This document shows positions 18,388 through 58,384 of a stretch of DNA of 64,000 nt, one piece after another. Position 1 is the stretch's first letter; the number at the start of each line of letters is the position of its first letter. Below the pieces are notes generated by a model. It made no database searches, was not told where the DNA came from, and was given only the letters and a program-made list of their open reading frames with translations. This DNA is from Oscillibacter valericigenes. GTDB lineage: Bacteria; Bacillota; Clostridia; Oscillospirales; Oscillospiraceae. The stretch is from the NCBI RefSeq assembly GCF_021531915.1, contig NZ_JAFBIV010000001.1, positions 1 to 64,000 of the forward strand. Direction: 5' to 3'. Both the position numbers and the translations under genes were made by a program.

Positions 18388-21300
18388 TTATTTTCTGTAC
18401 TGCCCCATCCGCCAGACGATGGCGGAGACCTGACCGCGGGTCAGGGTGTTGCCGGGCTTGTAGGTGCTGGTGCCGTTGGAGAAGTATCCCTCCACGATGC
18501 CCGCCTCGTTCAGGGCCTGGACGCTGGCGTCCGTGGTATCCGTGAAGGGCTTCACGCTGGAGACCTTGGATGTATCCAGCTTCATGGCCCCGGCGGCCAG
18601 CTGGGCCACCTGCAGGCGGGTGATGGGGGCGCTGAGGTTCACATTGCTGCGGGTGATGATGCCCTCCGCCCGGGCCTTGGCCAGATAGCCGCTGAAGGGA
18701 TTGCTGTCCGTGGGCTTCTGCTCGGGATAGCCCGCCGCCAGCATGATCAGCTTCAGGGCCGCACCGTAGGAGATCTTGTTGTCGGGCTTGAAGCTGCCGT
18801 CGGTGTAGCCGTCAATGACGCCTGCGTCGGACAGCTCCGCCACGTACTTGTAGCACCAGGTGGAGGCGGTCACGTCGCTGAACTTCTTCTGGGTGTTCAC
18901 CACGCCGAGGCTGAACTTGCCCACGCCCAGGGCCTTGCCGGTGCTGTCACAGACCGCGTAGGGGATCTCCACGTTGCCGGTGAAGCCCGCCGCCGGGACG
19001 AACCGCAGCTGGCTGATGGTCCAGGTGCCGCTGCTGTATCCGTACACCGTGCTGGTGTCCGCCTTGCGGGTGGTGCCGGTGCCCACGTACACGGTGCCCT
19101 TGGCGCTGGCGGGCAGGCTCAGCAGCTGGATGCCGTAGAAGGTGCCCACGCTCTTGGCCACCGCTGCCGCGATGGAGGGCGCCGGGAAGCTGACAGAGGT
19201 GCCCTTGGTAATGACGCCGTAGACCTCGGGCACGGTGGCGGAGGCGGTCACGCTGATGATGGCGATACCGGTGACTGCCACGCCGCCGGTGCCGTAGGCG
19301 GTGAAGGGAATGGCGGCGCAGTAGTTGCTGCCGGAGGGCACGTAGGTCAGCTCAGAGAGCGTGTACTGCGCGGCGGAGGTGGGGCTGACGTAGTAGGCCT
19401 GGGTGGTGCAGTTGGCCGCCGTCAGCTGCAGGCGGGCCGTGGTGCCGTACTGGCTGGCGCTGTAGTAGTTGTAGTACAGGCCGCCCACGCTGGGCACGCC
19501 CAGCAGCTTCACATACTGCAGGGTGCTGGTGGGGTACTTGGACCGCAGGAAGCGGGAGAAGTCGTTGGCCTTCAGCTGCACTTTCGTGGTGCTGGTGGTC
19601 TGGTACAGGATGTCGCCCGCCGCGGTGCCGGTGGTGGTCGTGGTCTCAGGGGCGATGACCACGGTGCCGTCCACATAGCGGCTGCTGTTGTAGTAGGCCC
19701 GGAATTCCAGGGTCACGGCCTTGTCGAAGCCGCTGCCCGCCACAAAGCTCAGCTTGCTGAGGGGATAGGCGGTGTCGTCGTTGTCGGGCATGGCGCTGGT
19801 GTCATAGTAGAAGGTGGCGTCTTCCAGGCCGCCGGCGGTGAAGCGCTCCTGAGAGGACCGGCCGTAGTTATAGTACATGTAGCCGGTGGTGGAGCTGAGG
19901 TTGTCCGAGCCGGTGAAGACCACGTATTTCAGGGTGTAGTTCTTGTAAGTCTCCTGGAAATAGTCGTTGAAATCGTCCTCGTCAAAGACGGTCTCCTTCT
20001 GCGCGGTGCCCTTGTAGTTGATGTCGCCCTCACCGGTGGTGCCGTCGCCGATCTCGATCACCAGGGTGCCGCTGGCCTTCCGGGTGGTATTGTAGTAGGC
20101 GGTGAAGTCCAGCTCCACGGTGCGCTTGGCGGCGCTCTTGGGAGCCACAAAGCTCAGGTCCGCCAGGGCATAGTCCCCGTCGGAGGCGGAGCTGTAATAG
20201 AATTTGTAGTCGTCGATGCTGGTCTTGTTGAAGGACTTTTCGCCGGAGCCCTTGTAGTCATAATAGACCGTACCGGTGGAGGTGCTGAGGGTGTCCGTGG
20301 TAGAGAACTCCACATACTTGATGGTGGAGGTGGAGTTGGTCTCATCCCGGAAGAACTTGTTGAAGTCCGTTTTGTCGAATTCCACTTCCTCGCCGGGATT
20401 TACCTTGTAGGTGATGTTGCCGCCGGAGTTGTCCTCTCCCACCACCAGCTTCAGGGTGCCGGTCATACTGTTGCTGTTGGTGCCGTAGGCGGTAAAAGTG
20501 ACGGACAGAGTGTCGTCTTTTGCGCTGCTGGGGGCTTTCAGGGCCAGATCGCTGAGGGGGTAATCACCATAGCTGGAACTGCTGTAATAGAAGTCCTTGC
20601 CGGTGAAGGAGGAGCGGGTCAGATCATCGCCGTCGCAGGTGACAACGCCCTCAAAGCCGGAGTAGGCGGAGCTGGTCACGCTGAACCTCACATAGCGGAA
20701 GGTGCCGGAGCATTCGGAGTCATAGGCGGCCTTGAAGTCGCTGACATCAAAGCTCACGGACTTGCCGGGCTTGACGGTATAGGTGATGTCGCTGCCGGAG
20801 CCGTCGCCATCCACCACCAGCTTCAGGGTGCCGGTCATACTGTTGCTGTTGGTGCCGTAGGCGGTGTAGGTGACGGACAGAGTGTCGTCTTTTGCGCTGC
20901 TGGGGGCTTTCAGGGCCAGATCGCTGAGGGGGTAATCACCATAGCTGGAACTGCTGTAGTAGAAGTCGTTGCCGATGAAGGCAGAGCGGGTCAGATCATC
21001 GCCGTCGCAGGTGACAACGCCTTCAAAACCGGAGTAGGCGGTGCTGGTCACGCTGAACCTCACATAGCGGAAGGTGCCGGAGCACTCGGAATCATAGGCG
21101 GCCTTGAAGTCGCTGACATCGAAGCTCACGGATTTGCCGGGCTTGACGGTGTAGGTGATGTCGGAAGTGCTCGTCACATCATAGACGGCGTAATAGGTGA
21201 CATTGGAATTTACGGTCGTGTTTGCCACCGCAGAAGAGGAGTAATAATAGGTGCGGCCGTCCCATGCGGCAGAAGTGCCGGGATTGGAAGTGGTCCAGCC

Positions 21301-22297: not shown

Positions 22298-23422
22298 ATG
22301 GCTTTGATCGAATATGATTCTTATAAGCAGAAGCTCCGGGAGCTGGGCCCCGAGCTGGAAAAGCTGGCCGCTGCCCTGGACATTGAGAGTGCCAAGCAGG
22401 AGGCTGCACGCCTGGAGGACGAGACTGCCCAGGATGGCTTCTGGAACGACCTGGAGCGGTCCCAGAAGGTGCAGATGCGCCTGAAGCAGCTGCAGAACAA
22501 GATCGCCCGCCAGGAAAAGCTGGTCTCCGCCTGGGAGGATCTGACCACCCTGTGCGAAATGGGCCAGGAGGAGGACGACGCCGACATCCTGGAGGAACTA
22601 AAGAGTGAGTTCGCAGACTTGGAAGAGAAGGTTGAGGAGACCCGCATGACCACCCTGCTCTCCGGTGAGTACGACAACTCCAACGCCATTCTGCAGTTCC
22701 ATGCCGGCGCCGGCGGCACCGAGGCCCAGGACTGGGCCCAGATGCTCTACCGCATGTACACCCGCTGGGCCGAGCGCCACGGCTTTGTCTATAAAATTCT
22801 GGACTATGAAGAGGGCGACGAGGCCGGCATCAAGTCCGCTGCCATCTCCATCGAGGGCGAAAACGCCTATGGCCTTCTGAAGAGCGAGAACGGCGTCCAC
22901 CGGCTGGTCCGGGTGTCCCCCTTTGACGCCAACGCCCGCCGCCAGACCTCCTTCGCCGCCATCGAGGTCATGCCGGAGCTGGAGAACGACGACTCCATTG
23001 AGATCCGGGAAGAGGACATCGAAATGCAGGTCTACCGCGCCTCCGGCGCAGGCGGCCAGCACGTCAACAAGACCTCCTCCGCCGTTCGCCTGACCCACAA
23101 GCCCACCGGCATCGTGGTGGCGTCACAGCAGGAGCGCAGCCAGTTCCAGAACAAGGACAACTGTATGAAGATGCTGAGGGCCAAGCTGCTGGAGCTGAAG
23201 GCGCAGCAGCACGCGGAGAAGATCTCCGACATCAAGGGCGTCCAGCTGAAGATCGAGTGGGGCAGCCAGATCCGGTCCTACGTGTTCATGCCCTACCAGA
23301 TGGTGAAGGATACCCGCACCGGCTACGAGACCGGCAACATCGACAACGTGATGGACGGCGATCTGGATGGCTTCCTGAATGCCTACCTGACCCAGCTGGC
23401 AACAGGCGAGCTGAAAAAGTAA
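22298..23422 (+). CDS. prfB: Peptide chain release factor 2
   Basis: A 374-residue class-I release factor that hydrolyses peptidyl-tRNA at UGA and UAA. The stop-reading SPF tripeptide (VRVSPFDANARRQ) and the catalytic GGQ loop (SGAGGQHVNKTSSAVR) are intact. The whole protein is encoded in one frame: the region where most bacteria have the CTTTGA +1 frameshift signal reads through as LAAALDIESAK, so there is no programmed frameshift. A displaced copy of the last 21 codons and stop lies at 23560-23625. Confidence 0.96.
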   Translation: MALIEYDSYKQKLRELGPELEKLAAALDIESAKQEAARLEDETAQDGFWNDLERSQKVQMRLKQLQNKIARQEKLVSAWEDLTTLCEMGQEEDDADILEELKSEFADLEEKVEETRMTTLLSGEYDNSNAILQFHAGAGGTEAQDWAQMLYRMYTRWAERHGFVYKILDYEEGDEAGIKSAAISIEGENAYGLLKSENGVHRLVRVSPFDANARRQTSFAAIEVMPELENDDSIEIREEDIEMQVYRASGAGGQHVNKTSSAVRLTHKPTGIVVASQQERSQFQNKDNCMKMLRAKLLELKAQQHAEKISDIKGVQLKIEWGSQIRSYVFMPYQMVKDTRTGYETGNIDNVMDGDLDGFLNAYLTQLATGELKK

Positions 23423-23559
23423 CAGAAAGCAACGAGCCGTCCCCCGCCGTGAATGCGGCGTCCAAGCGTTTTGCGAAGCAAAACCTTGAAATGGACGGGC
23501 TTTGCCCGGCCATTTGAGTCAAATGCGGGGCCCCCGCGCGTCTCTGGCGCGTGGGGTGC
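23423..23559 (+). repeat. Palindrome-rich insert between two copies of the prfB 3' end
   Basis: 137 bases with several small-loop hairpins: CGCCG/CGGCG, GTTTTGC/GCAAAAC (23468-23474 with 23478-23484), AAATGG plus CGGGC against GCCCG plus CCATTT (23489-23515), GCGGGG/CCCCGC and CGCG/CGCG. No coding potential. It separates the working prfB end from a second prfB end. Confidence 0.75.
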
Positions 23560-23625
23560 GGCGATCTGGACGGGTTCCTGAACGCCTATCTGACCCAGCT
23601 GGCCACCGGCGAGCTGAAAAAGTAA
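23560..23625 (+). pseudogene. Displaced second copy of the prfB 3' end
   Basis: 66 bases encode the same last 21 residues and stop as 23357-23422, offset by 203. The six differences are all synonymous third-position changes. It has no start and is not translated in the current arrangement. A likely terminator (23637-23667) follows this copy rather than the working one. Confidence 0.9.
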
Positions 23626-25097: not shown

Positions 25098-25131
25098 GCC
25101 GACGGACAGAGAGACGTGGAGATATGACCAG

Positions 25132-25346
25132 GCGCCCCGGATGATTCCGGGGCGCCTTAGTCTGCTGATAAACCTGTAAGAGCTGAGCGACGGGAAGGAA
25201 GATAGTTACGAAAGAAACCCAGGAGGGGTGTCTTTCGTTTTCAATCACAAGTTTTTCGAACTTTTTGAAGTTCGAAAAACTTGCAGCAGCTTGTCGAAAA
25301 AGACTTTTTCGACAAGCTGGGGCGCCCCGGATGATTCCGGGGCGCC
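25132..25346 (+). repeat. Terminator-nested structured element, copy A
   Basis: Order: terminator hairpin GGCGCCCCGG/CCGGGGCGCC (25132-25157); linker; hairpin I ACGAAAGA/TCTTTCGT (25209-25239) with inner ACCC-AGGAG-GGGT; hairpin II (25250-25283); hairpin III (25288-25320, 15 bp with a three-base loop); then an identical copy of the terminator hairpin (25321-25346). Period 189 bp. Related copies lie at 26119-26332 and 51549-51772. The element reads in the same direction as the upstream MATE gene. Confidence 0.88.
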
Positions 25347-26052: not shown

Positions 26053-26118
26053 GAAATCGCTCCTCCCTCAAAGGTTGATGAGGGAAGTATGGACGGATTT
26101 TCCAGAGTTTATACAAAA

Positions 26119-26332
26119 AGTGCCCGGCAGACCTGCCAGGCACTCAGCATGTCGAAAAAGTCTTTTCGACATGCTGCTTTCGATTTCAGAACTTTCAAAA
26201 AGTTCTGAAATCTATGGATTTGAATGGCGCAGGGCACCCTTCCTGGGTTCCCCGCGCACACCCTTCCTTCACATCGCGCAAGATTTTCGCGTTTATCGAC
26301 AGACTAAGTGCCCGGCAGACCTGCCGGGCACT
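26119..26332 (-). repeat. Terminator-nested structured element, copy B (inverted)
   Basis: Read on the minus strand after gpmI: terminator hairpin (26307-26332), linker, hairpin I (26227-26257, GCGCGGGG/CCCTGCGC with inner ACCC-AGGAA-GGGT), hairpin II (26182-26212), hairpin III (26145-26176) and a second terminator hairpin (26119-26144, one mismatch to the first) followed by a T run. Period 188 bp. The stems differ from copies A and C but still pair. Confidence 0.85.
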
Positions 26333-29136: not shown

Positions 29137-29143
29137 ACTTCTT

Positions 29144-29215
29144 TTAAGCGTCCAGCAAACAAGCCACGCCGGGAAGCTCTTTACCCTCCATAAATTCCAG
29201 GCTGGCGCCGCCGCC
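29144..29215 (-). pseudogene. Displaced second copy of the pgk 3' end
   Basis: 72 bases encode the same last 23 residues and a stop codon as 29425-29496, offset by 281. The four differences are GCC/GCT, TGC/TGT, CTG/TTG and TGA/TAA, all synonymous. It has no start and is downstream of the working gene end. Confidence 0.9.
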
Positions 29216-29424
29216 TCGTCGGAGCGGGCTCCATATCCCTCGCTTCCGCCCTCTGGCGAAAGCTCGCTCATTTCGCGGCTCCTCCTCTCCCCACGAAAAA
29301 CGCTTACCCGCAAGGGGTACGCCGCATCCGTAAACGGCAAAGCCGCCAACGGCTGCGCAGTCGCTGGTTTTTCGTGGGGTCCCCTCTGGGATGATCTCCA
29401 CCGTCGTCGGCGCAGAGGTCATTT
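29216..29424 (-). repeat. Insert between two copies of the pgk 3' end
   Basis: 209 bases without a plausible gene. It contains an inverted repeat CCCCACGAAAAA (29290-29301) against TTTTTCGTGGGG (29369-29380) that frames a GC-rich core with further small palindromes (such as GGCAAAGCC). Confidence 0.7.
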
Positions 29425-30687
29425 TCAAGCGTCCAGCAGGCAGGCCACGCCGGGAAGCTCTTTACCCTCCATAAATTCCAGGCTGGCGCCGCCGCCGGTG
29501 GAGATGTGGGTCATCTTGTCGGCATAGCCCAGCTGCTGCACGGCAGCCGCGCTGTCGCCGCCGCCGATGATGGTGATGGCAGAGGTCTTGCTCAGAGCCT
29601 CGGCCACGGCCTCGGTGCCCTTGGCGAAGGCGGGGAACTCAAACACGCCCATGGGGCCGTTCCAGATGACGGTGCCGGCATCCTGCACGGCCTCGCAGTA
29701 CAGCTTCACGGTCTCGGGGCCGATGTCCAGCCCCTCCCAGCCGTCGGGGATCTGGCCGGCCTTCACCACCTGGCTGTTGGCGTCAGGGGCGAACTTGTCG
29801 GCGCAGACGGTGTCCACAGGCAGCAGCAGCTTCACGCCCTTGGCCTTGGCCTTTTCCATCATTTCCTTGGAGTAGTCCATCCAGTCGGCTTCCAGCAGGC
29901 TGTTGCCCACCTTTCCGCCCTCGGCGGCGGAGAAGGTGTAGGCCATGCCGCCGCCGATGATGATGGTGTCGGCAATTTCCAGCAGGTTGTTGATGACTCC
30001 GATCTTGCTGGACACCTTGGAGCCGCCCAGGATCGCCACCAGAGGGCGCTTGGGATTGGCCAGGGCGCCGCCGATGATCTCCAGCTCCTTCTGGATCAGG
30101 AAGCCGGACACAGCAGGCAGGTAGTCGGCCACGCCGGCGGTGGAGGCGTGGGCCCGGTGCACGGCGCCGAAAGCGTCGGACACGTAGACCTCAGCCATAT
30201 CAGCCATGGCCTTGGCCAAAGCGGGGTCATTCTTGGTCTCGCCCTTCTCAAAGCGGGTGTTTTCCAGCAGCAGGATCTGACCGGGCTGCAGGGCGGCGGC
30301 CTTGGCCTGGGCGTCGGGGCCCACCACGTCGGCGGCCATCATCACGTCCTTGCCCAGCAGCTCGCTGAGCCGCTTGGCAACGGGAGCCAGGGAGAGCTGC
30401 TTCAGGGACTTCTCCCAGTCCTCCTTTTTGGCGTCCTTGCCCTTTTCCGCCTGCTTCTTGGCGTAGGACTCGAAGGTGGCTGCGGGCTTGCCCAGGTGAG
30501 AGCAGGCGATGACGGCGGCGTTCTGGTCCAGCAGGTACTGGATGGTGGGTAGGGCGGCCACAATGCGCTTGTCATCGGTGATGACGCCGCTGCCGTCCTT
30601 GGCCATAGGGACGTTGAAGTCGCAGCGCAGCAGGACCTTCTTGCCGGCCACATCCACGTCGCGGACAGTTTTCTTGTTGTAATTCAT
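29425..30687 (-). CDS. pgk: Phosphoglycerate kinase
   Basis: A 420-residue two-domain kinase making ATP from 1,3-bisphosphoglycerate in glycolysis. [10 protein letters not shown] with the substrate-binding Asp/Asn, the basic VLRC and HRAHAST regions, [11 protein letters not shown], the hinge, and the nucleotide-binding GGGDSAAAV near the C-terminus are visible. A Lys-rich stretch (about 80-95, [17 protein letters not shown]) extends a surface loop compared with many Pgk proteins. GGAGG precedes the ATG. trmL lies 66 bases upstream on the same strand. The 3' end is duplicated downstream. Confidence 0.97.
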
Positions 30688-51548: not shown

Positions 51549-51772
51549 GCGCCCCCGCGGTTCTGAAAACCGCGGGGGCGTAAACTTTCAATGGTCCCGC
51601 AAGACTTGTGCGACGGGAAGGAAGATAGTTACGAAAGAAACCCAGGAGGGGTGTCTTTCGTTTTCAATCATAAGTTTTTCTGGACATTCAGGCCAGAAAA
51701 ACTTGCGCCAGCTTGTCGAAAAGTCTTTTCGACAAGCTGGCGCCCCCGCGGTTCTGAAAACCGCGGGGGCGT
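51549..51772 (+). repeat. Terminator-nested structured element, copy C
   Basis: Terminator hairpin CGCCCCCGCGG with complement (51550-51580), linker, hairpin I (51631-51661, same sequence as copy A), hairpin II (51672-51683 with 51693-51704), hairpin III (51709-51739) and an identical second terminator hairpin (51741-51771). The two 33-base terminator copies are identical and offset by 191 bp. It follows the ECF gene in the same direction. Confidence 0.88.
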
Positions 51773-58271: not shown

Positions 58272-58384
58272 GGCAGAGTAGGAACATACGTGACTAGTGC
58301 CGGAAAAACGGGGAGTTGTTTTCCGGACGAAAAGGAACGAAGGATGGCCTTCTTCCTGCAGTGTGTGTTCCGCATCCCGCTGCC
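58272..58384 (+). promoter_or_regulatory. Tetrahydrofolate (THF) riboswitch
   Basis: The closing helix GGCAG (58272-58276) with CTGCC (58380-58384), the GAGTAG motif right after it, GGAAC (58281-58285) with GTTCC (58367-58371), CCGGAAAA with TTTTCCGG (58300-58307 with 58319-58326), an AGGAA/TTCCT arm, and the late GCATCCCGC match the class I THF riboswitch layout as remembered. It is directly upstream of a folate ECF S-component gene. Translational control is likely since no clear terminator follows. Confidence 0.78.

What the first reader, a model, noticed from the sequence alone, without database searches (positions are those of the whole stretch)
25132..25346. Copy A of an apparently undescribed terminator-nested structured element
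After the MATE gene a terminator hairpin (25132-25157) is followed by a linker and three hairpins, then an exact second copy of the same 26-base terminator palindrome (25321-25346). The repeat distance is 189 bp. Hairpin I has an inner ACCC-AGGAG-GGGT fold that exposes an AGGAG loop; hairpin III is 15 bp with a three-base loop. The element contains no reading frame. Three copies in 64 kb with the same order and spacing suggest a genome-wide family. I know of no described class with this build: neither REP, MITE nor group II intron remnants carry a copied local terminator at the far end.
Basis: seen in the sequence. Interest (0 to 1): 0.88.

Follow-up and report, generated by a model that had tools for sequence, protein, structure and literature searches.

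The report
Mobile element that duplicates its terminator
In gut Oscillospiraceae, a small gene-less mobile DNA element, apparently moved by IS1182-type transposases, inserts at the ends of genes by recognising the hairpin of a transcription terminator and leaves a full copy of that terminator on each side, so the host gene keeps its stop signal.

Summary
The thing is a MITE, a short transposon without genes, whose target is a terminator-like palindrome and whose target-site duplication is that whole palindrome. Copies A, B and C all have single-palindrome sites in relative G062. Of 85 evaluable copies, 70 sit between two copies of a local palindrome, different at each locus; repeat length follows palindrome length. 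The ends are imperfect inverted repeats matching those of ~1.5-1.6 kb IS1182-family insertion sequences of the same bacterial family, and 15 of 31 fetched IS loci show the same whole-palindrome duplication. IS1272 (IS1182 family) is published as stem-loop-targeting but deletes the stem-loop; [quoted passage not shown] Here that branch appears to have happened many times. The core (purine-rich linker plus hairpin I) covaries, with some G.U pairs, across families of the order, matches no Rfam family in the scans run and was not found in an intact IS copy; its role is open. Verdict: new variant of a known kind (stem-loop-targeting IS1182-type MITE), with an unexplained RNA-like core.

The parts
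25131..25156 (.). Copy A: left copy of the local terminator palindrome (target-site duplication; exact repeat reaches 25157)
   Evidence: single palindrome at the orthologous site in G062
25158..25319 (+). Copy A: the mobile element (MITE)
   Evidence: covariance model R1 match 25158-25319, E 1.7e-43; alignment
25158..25173 (+). Copy A: left end, diverged from the family consensus CAGRCTGTCGATAAACCCGG that resembles the IS right end
25188..25201 (+). Copy A: purine-rich conserved linker CGACGGGAAGGAAG
25209..25237 (+). Copy A: hairpin I with inner ACCC-AGGAG-GGGT, covarying core
25248..25283 (+). Copy A: hairpin II, a palindrome whose arms differ between copies
25287..25319 (+). Copy A: hairpin III = right end; its outer arm read inwards, CAGCTTGTCGAAAAAGTC, equals an IS left end
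25321..25346 (.). Copy A: right copy of the terminator palindrome (exact repeat reaches 25347)
26306..26332 (.). Copy B (minus strand): copy of the terminator at the element's left (5') side
   Evidence: both copies map to one palindrome in G062
26145..26306 (-). Copy B: the mobile element
   Evidence: R1 match 26145-26306, E 4.1e-44
26118..26144 (.). Copy B: copy of the terminator at the element's right (3') side, one base changed
51549..51581 (.). Copy C: left copy of the terminator palindrome, 33 nt
51582..51739 (+). Copy C: the mobile element (left inverted repeat decayed)
   Evidence: R1 match 51581-51739, E 6.0e-38
51740..51772 (.). Copy C: right copy of the terminator palindrome, identical to the left
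   Evidence: one palindrome in G062

Best explanation
[quoted passage not shown] The target is a DNA hairpin, often an intrinsic terminator, with no fixed sequence. Shown: in relative G062 all three window sites have a single palindrome where G000 has palindrome-element-palindrome; the repeat ends at the foot of the palindrome in most copies and its length follows palindrome length; IS1182-family elements with matching ends make the same duplication at about half of the loci fetched. Inferred: the palindrome is read as a hairpin on each strand; the transposase joins the element's 3' ends at the 5' foot of each hairpin, so the staggered cut spans the whole hairpin and gap repair copies it. This is pathway b drawn as hypothetical by Wan et al. 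2017 for IS1272. Consequence (inferred): the element uses terminators as sites without depriving the gene of a terminator, and itself ends up between two terminators. The core (CGGRAGGRARG linker plus hairpin I) looks constrained as RNA; I think a role in the element's own biology is most likely, for example binding the transposase, its mRNA or a host RNA-binding protein. That last step is a guess.
For: Single-palindrome sites: window 26118-26144 and 26306-26332 both align to L298 1501-1527 of G062; site A has one palindrome there; at site C the two flanks overlap on 30 bases of G062. Duplication: 70 of 85 evaluable copies; palindrome foot 0-1 nt from the element in 58 of 70 (right) and 55 of 70 (left), stem score median 11 against 4 for shuffled flanks, maximum 8; repeat length 18-42 nt, r 0.81 with palindrome span over 59 direct repeats, 40 of 59 identical. 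Recurrent targets: at site B relative G024, and at site A relative G321, have an element of the other hairpin I subtype, so probably independent insertions at orthologous terminators. Parent: family left end CAGGCTGTCGATAAACCCGG (e.g. L053) against IS right end CAGGCTGTCGAGAAACCCGG of G025, 19 of 20; copy A right end CAGCTTGTCGAAAAAGTC against the IS left end of L151, 18 of 18. Transposases: NCBIfam transpos_IS1182 386-407 bits, cut-off 270, 4 of 4 scanned. Same duplication at 15 of 31 fetched IS loci. Element and IS occur in one genome in G062 and G240. A second MITE family of unrelated core has the same end design; 7 of 10 evaluable copies carry the duplication. Core: hairpin I 97.6% paired over 21 sequences, 8 of 12 pairs with changes on both sides, 0 of 500 shuffles reach the covariation score.
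Against: G000 shows no intact IS with these ends: one weak PF13751 match, 352-aa frame, no matching inverted repeat, so the helper is inferred from relatives. 15 of 85 evaluable copies lack a duplicated palindrome by my score: 7 have a palindrome (stem score 9 or more) on both sides, 3 on one side, 5 on neither (L006, L196, L227, L243, L247). Among 17 copies of other genera with full flanks only 9 score 30 or more, and 11 of 31 IS loci with both ends called show no repeat. 11 of 70 duplicated palindromes align better with one copy inverted (two of them by 1-2 points only), which the simple model does not predict. The core was not found in an intact IS copy (1 hit in 105 loci, beside a broken transposase), so the MITE is not a plain internal deletion; only the ends match. 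Loss by recombination between the two repeats would also leave a single palindrome, so the G062 comparison alone does not give the direction of change. Only 36 of 70 have a run of four T (or A at the far side) by a strict test, so 'terminator' rests on appearance for many targets. In A2 one of five covariation measures (further pair types) is reached by 47 of 500 shuffles.
Confidence: 0.88

Rival explanations
1. A structured non-coding RNA gene or cis-regulatory 3' element that carries its own terminator, whose upstream neighbour happens to have a similar terminator.
For: Strong folding, covariation and G.U pairs in hairpin I, no gene-sized ORF.
Against: The two terminators are copies of each other at each locus but unrelated between loci; single-palindrome sites in G062 at all three window sites; family ends match an IS. 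The RNA idea may hold for the core, not for the arrangement.
Confidence: 0.04
2. A group IIC intron relic or other retroelement inserted after terminator hairpins by target-primed reverse transcription.
For: Group IIC introns insert after terminator hairpins (recalled, no call); the core is RNA-like.
Against: No group II family appears among the Rfam rows; the ends are inverted repeats shared with a DDE transposon; reverse splicing should not duplicate the hairpin (recalled). No search for a reverse transcriptase was made.
Confidence: 0.02
3. The element inserts beside a terminator and a later event (gene conversion, template switching at palindromes) copies the terminator to the other side.
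For: 11 of 70 repeats align better inverted, a known product of template switching at quasi-palindromes (the mechanism is recalled).
Against: The copy reaches the foot of the palindrome at both junctions in most copies and occurs at 15 of 31 IS loci as well, which fits one insertion chemistry better than a repeated secondary event.
Confidence: 0.06
4. A MITE of another transposase that happens to share the CAG..TGTCGA end with IS1182 elements.
For: No intact helper seen in G000; only about 20 bp of each end match.
Against: End sequence, target class and whole-palindrome duplication all agree with the IS1182-family copies.
Confidence: 0.05

Closest known systems
IS1272 and TnSha1/TnSha2 (IS1182 family; Wan et al. 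2017 PMC5678879; Furi et al. 2016 PMC4923244; passages read)
   Same: DDE transposase of the IS1182 family; target recognised as an inverted repeat or terminator hairpin of any sequence; insertion at the hairpin.
   Different: IS1272/TnSha1 delete all or part of the hairpin and make no duplication; here the whole hairpin is duplicated. Wan et al. draw whole-stem-loop duplication only as hypothetical pathway b of their Fig. 13. The present element is a 160-nt MITE with a structured core.
IS1182 family at large (Siguier et al. 2015, as cited inside PMC5678879 and PMC4923244; not read itself)
   Same: Some members are said to target palindromic sequences.
   Different: Wan et al. say the review gave no detailed data. 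I recall from memory that IS tables give direct repeats of 0-60 bp for this family, which would include duplications like these; unchecked (a Siguier review looked up by DOI was not held).
Bacterial MITEs in general (review PMC10969869 and MITEAba12 PMC6382973, passages read)
   Same: Short, gene-less, inverted-repeat ends shared with an IS, core unrelated to the IS, mostly intergenic.
   Different: Short target duplications (9 bp for MITEAba12) against 18-42 nt whole palindromes here; the passages read describe no MITE targeting terminators in this way.
REP/BIME and SPRITE-type palindromic repeats (recalled; SPRITE named in PMC10969869)
   Same: Intergenic palindromes, terminator-like hairpins.
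   Different: The palindrome here belongs to the host locus and is duplicated; the element itself has transposon ends.

Membership tests
MITE (non-autonomous DNA transposon) | Short, no transposase gene | tested here: met
   About 160-nt body; longest ORF wholly inside copy A is 24 aa
MITE (non-autonomous DNA transposon) | Terminal inverted repeats | tested here: met
   First 15 nt against inverted last 15 nt: median 11 of 15 (range 6-12) in 65 copies, internal controls median 4, maximum 10; imperfect, and decayed in window copy C
MITE (non-autonomous DNA transposon) | Target-site duplication with an empty site elsewhere | tested here: met
   G062 single palindrome at A, B, C; 70 of 85 copies flanked by the duplicated palindrome
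MITE (non-autonomous DNA transposon) | Multiple dispersed copies | tested here: met
   14 read in G000; 51 of 86 genus genomes match R1
MITE (non-autonomous DNA transposon) | Mobilised in trans by a related IS | not testable with these tools
   Shared ends and targets only
IS1182-family derived | Ends shared with an element encoding an IS1182 transposase | tested here: met
   19/20 (family copy L053 against G025 IS) and 18/18 (copy A against L151); transpos_IS1182 386-407 bits
IS1182-family derived | Internal sequence derived from the IS | tested here: not met
   Core pattern in 1 of 105 IS-transposase loci, beside a broken copy; so filed as sharing ends, not as an internal deletion
IS1272-type stem-loop replacing transposition | Target is a hairpin of any sequence | tested here: met
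   Stem score median 11 against 4 shuffled; targets differ between loci
IS1272-type stem-loop replacing transposition | Stem-loop deleted, no duplication | tested here: not met
   Whole stem-loop duplicated at most copies
Group II intron relic | Intron domains recognised by Rfam | tested here: not met
   No group II row
Known Rfam RNA family | Match at gathering score | tested here: not met
   Window: only THF riboswitch and tRNA

The most novel reading that the evidence does not exclude
Two novelties may sit in one object. First, a transposition pathway whose cut sites are set by DNA structure alone (the 5' feet of a hairpin), giving duplications as long as the hairpin whatever its length or sequence. 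Second, the MITE carries a functional RNA (purine linker plus hairpin I) kept by selection across families of the order, so the MITE is a vehicle for an RNA that acts for the element or the host, bracketed by two terminators that would define its transcript.
Probability: 0.3. Interest if true: 0.78.

Novelty: new variant of a known kind. Interest (0 to 1): 0.62.

Why it matters
In the papers read, stem-loop targeting by IS1182-family elements goes with loss of the hairpin. A large natural set in which the whole hairpin is duplicated makes the structure-reading step testable: repeat length should equal hairpin length for any designed hairpin. It also suggests how a transposon can use terminators as safe sites without costing the host a terminator, explains a class of double terminators in gut Clostridia, and offers an unassigned RNA-like motif conserved across families.

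Tried and rejected
Rfam at gathering score on the window and at relaxed E-value on copies A/B, the long form, a phage-contig copy and distant copies: rows far below gathering scores or none. Search for an autonomous copy of the MITE in G000 by its left and right ends: none with distant ends. G000's own PF13751 protein at C16: no matching inverted repeat. First attempts to find both ends of G033/G025 IS copies: no duplicated flank found; solved with G298 and other genera. The core in IMG/VR: 0 and 1 stretches; the IS1182 protein in IMG/VR: no relative confirmed. The core beside a broken transposase in L086: read by eye, ends not recognisable, inconclusive. The stem of linker CCCG/CGGG is not kept in diverged copies of A1, dropped. 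Sigma-70 promoter scan near copies A and B: none found, 0.4 expected, so no evidence of an own promoter.

The 85-copy tally requires a CGGGAA linker and a recognisable left end; window copies B and C are therefore not in it and were checked separately. Copies were made distinct by sequence only, so orthologous insertions of near relatives can count twice. A1 uses 30 of 65 copies after an 88% identity cut. A2 has 21 chosen sequences: 6 from the genus or genome contigs and 15 of the 20 loci; left out were L381 (G000), L387 (near-copy of L386), L395 and L396 (no full flanks), and L399, whose core is too diverged to align and would have lowered the pairing. An earlier count said 12 of 14 G000 copies show the duplication; the correct reading is 11 of 14, plus L012 with two diverged palindromes.

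Papers: passages read of PMC5678879, PMC4923244, PMC9208149, PMC10969869, PMC6382973, PMC7283042; the rest only as search listings. The statement that whole-hairpin duplication by this family, or such a MITE in Oscillospiraceae, was not found in print rests on those nine searches of the open-licence library only.

Full report
Observation. Copy A reads terminator (25131-25156), element (25158-25319), terminator (25321-25346). The exact direct repeat is 27 nt at distance 190. Copies B (minus strand) and C have the same order with unrelated terminators. The stretch folds at -125.7 kcal/mol against a shuffle mean of -68.8. Rfam at gathering score gives only a THF riboswitch and a tRNA in the window.

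Own genome. A 15-nt hairpin I motif with up to two mismatches gave 21 places in G000; 14 were printed and read as element copies, and the 7 two-mismatch places were not examined. 11 of the 14 have a local direct repeat that is a whole palindrome, different at each locus; L012 has two diverged palindromes, L002 is cut short, and L006 has none. Three copies (L006, L009, L010) are a long form with about 100 nt more in hairpin I.

Empty sites. In relative G062 the flanks of A and B lie on one contig with one palindrome at each site. The two terminator copies around B both align to the same 27 bases of G062, and site A has one AGGCGCCCCGGATCATCCGGGGCGCCT. At site C the two flanks overlap on 30 bases of G062, again one palindrome. 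So at 3 of 3 window sites a relative has one palindrome where G000 has two plus the element. The ten further stretches printed for sites A and B from other relatives each show one palindrome, by eye.

Recurrent targets. Not every relative is empty. At site B, G024 has an element in the same orientation, but with the other hairpin I subtype (GAAAG arms instead of GCGCG arms) and between its own terminator-like palindromes; at site A, the G321 contig begins inside an element of the subtype that G000 lacks there. These are probably independent insertions at orthologous terminators. At site C, G321 has a long-form element where G000 has a short one; whether that is independent was not settled.

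Scale. 117 distinct copies were recognised among the loci then held, 86 with a right end, 85 evaluable; 70 of the 85 have the duplicated flanking palindrome. In these 70 the foot of the palindrome is 0-1 nt from the element in 58 (right) and 55 (left); stem scores have median 11 against 4 in shuffled flanks (maximum 8). Over the 59 direct repeats the length runs from 18 to 42 nt, median 27, and follows the palindrome span (r 0.81; both are read from the same flanks, so this shows agreement of boundaries rather than independent measurements); 40 of 59 are identical. Of the 15 without a scored repeat, 7 have a palindrome on both sides, 3 on one side and 5 on neither.

Ends and parent. The left end (CAGRCTGTCGATAAA) and the inverted right end (CAGCTTGTCGAAAAA) match at a median of 11 of 15 positions. 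PF13751 transposase hits occur in 13 of 41 genus genomes, above the cut-off in 10. Of the 28 loci returned, 14 carry an end of the form CAG[CG]CTGTCGA[AG]AA, and in 13 of these a palindrome abuts it (L076 is the exception); two pairs of loci overlap. A C-terminal piece of such a transposase matched 17 of 250 family genomes; G298, a single 3.67-Mb contig, gave 20 scored matches. Of 31 IS loci fetched, 15 have the whole palindrome on both sides, abutting both ends, with IS lengths of 1496-1590 bp. In 5 the script did not find both ends. In 11 no repeat was found: seven of these (L154, L155, L158, L161, L167, L168, L174) have different palindromes at the two ends by eye, as expected after recombination between copies; three have doubtful left ends by length (L152, L153, L177), and L172 has almost no left flank. 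Four of four full-length proteins scanned are IS1182-family by NCBIfam (386-407 bits, cut-off 270) and carry DUF772 and DDE domains. The family left end (e.g. L053) matches the IS right end of G025 in 19 of 20 positions, and the right end of copy A matches the IS left end of L151 in 18 of 18. Copy A's own left end is more diverged.

Core. In 30 diverse copies hairpin I is 99.7% paired with both-side changes at 5 of 12 pairs, and hairpin III is 96.7% paired with both-side changes at 10 of 14; 0 of 500 shuffles reach any of the five measures, and slid structures pair 42-51%. The shuffle control does not remove relatedness. A covariance model found matches in 51 of 86 genus genomes and in 31 of 297 order genomes from 20 of 145 genera, some being only the end hairpin. 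Of the 19 loci from other genera, 17 had full flanks, and 9 of these have a flank repeat scoring 30 or more (eight of them 48 or more). Across 21 chosen sequences that include 15 of these loci, hairpin I is 97.6% paired with both-side changes at 8 of 12 pairs; 0 of 500 shuffles reach the covariation score, but 47 of 500 reach the number of further pair types. G.U cells are 16 of 360 in hairpin I against 5 of 419 in hairpin III, which leans towards RNA for hairpin I and DNA palindrome for hairpin III. Hairpin II has median stem score 14 (minimum 4) against 4 for shuffled sequence, with 33 distinct arm sequences among 65 copies. The core was not found in an intact IS (1 hit in 105 loci).

Second family. 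In G013 and G025 another MITE of about 221 nt with unrelated core sequence has the same plan: one plain end, a multi-hairpin core, and the other end as an end-repeat palindrome. 7 of 10 evaluable copies (11 fetched, one with too short a flank) lie between duplicated palindromes. So the plan exists with two different cores.

Mechanism. A DDE transposase that joins the element's 3' ends at the 5' foot of the hairpin on each strand makes a staggered cut spanning the whole hairpin; repair duplicates it. Wan et al. (PMC5678879, passages read) proposed this as pathway b in a scheme whose pathway a explains IS1272, which removes the hairpin; Furi et al. (PMC4923244, passages) report terminator targeting with partial deletion. 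The sequence data here fit pathway b. The cruciform and strand-transfer steps are inferred. The inverted loop in 11 of 70 repeats is not predicted and may reflect later template switching at the palindrome. Excision by recombination between the two repeats would restore a single palindrome, so single sites alone do not give direction; the independent copies at orthologous sites and the IS data favour insertion.

What it does for the host. Inference only: the gene upstream keeps a terminator, so insertion should be near neutral. Whether the core is transcribed is unknown; no sigma-70-like promoter was found near copies A and B.

Novelty. The class (MITE, IS1182, stem-loop target) is known; the whole-hairpin duplication at scale and the conserved RNA-like core are, as far as the searches show, not described in the held open-licence library. 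From memory, IS tables list direct repeats up to 60 bp for IS1182, so curators may have met such cases; this was not checked.

Noticed in passing
L006, L009, L010, L052; L378 3001-3064; L377 2926-3000; L379; L380; L218 ~5132; L241: A ~62-nt structured module (CTGCGCCCGCAGGCGC..GGAGCGCAACCG..CGGCTCTTAGCGCGGAGA) sits inside hairpin I of long-form elements and also apart from them in Oscillospiraceae DNA (Subdoligranulum plasmid OY725841, human-gut contigs MT838930 and MT839812), at least once as the loop of another hairpin, as if it were a separate repeat that settles in hairpin loops.
   Followed up: partly
L377 (MT838800.1, unverified human-gut phage contig): Carries what looks like a diverged copy of the long-form element with recognisable left and right ends; one of the few copies seen on a contig filed as phage.
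   Followed up: no
L357-L367 (G025, G013): Second MITE family (~221 nt, unrelated core) with the same end plan and duplicated palindromes in 7 of 10 evaluable copies.
   Followed up: partly
L311 2248-2461 (G024), L309 1-150 (G321): Elements of the other hairpin I subtype at the terminators orthologous to window sites B and A: the same terminators seem to be hit repeatedly.
   Followed up: partly
L008, L014, L058, L064, L066, L238, L245, L246, L257, L284, L285; IS loci L150, L171, L176; L366: The duplicated palindrome aligns better with one copy inverted (11 of 70 MITE copies; 3 of 15 IS loci by 3-4 points; 1 copy of the second family).
   Followed up: partly
L370-L374 (G018), L042 (G000 C44:144811): End hairpins with or without hairpin II next to a palindrome but without the motif-defined left part: decayed or truncated elements.
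   Followed up: no
window 20360-20659 and 20732-21031: 300-nt direct repeat, 88% identical, inside a long reading frame.
   Followed up: no
window 29142-29215 and 29423-29496; 23347-23422 and 23550-23625: Short direct repeats of 74 and 76 nt (95% and 87%), possibly partial gene duplications.
   Followed up: no
window 58272-58384: THF riboswitch, 80.6 bits; ordinary.
   Followed up: no
L086 ~1090-1200 (G013 C7): A core-like sequence about 300 bp from a broken IS1182-type transposase; ends not recognisable.
   Followed up: partly
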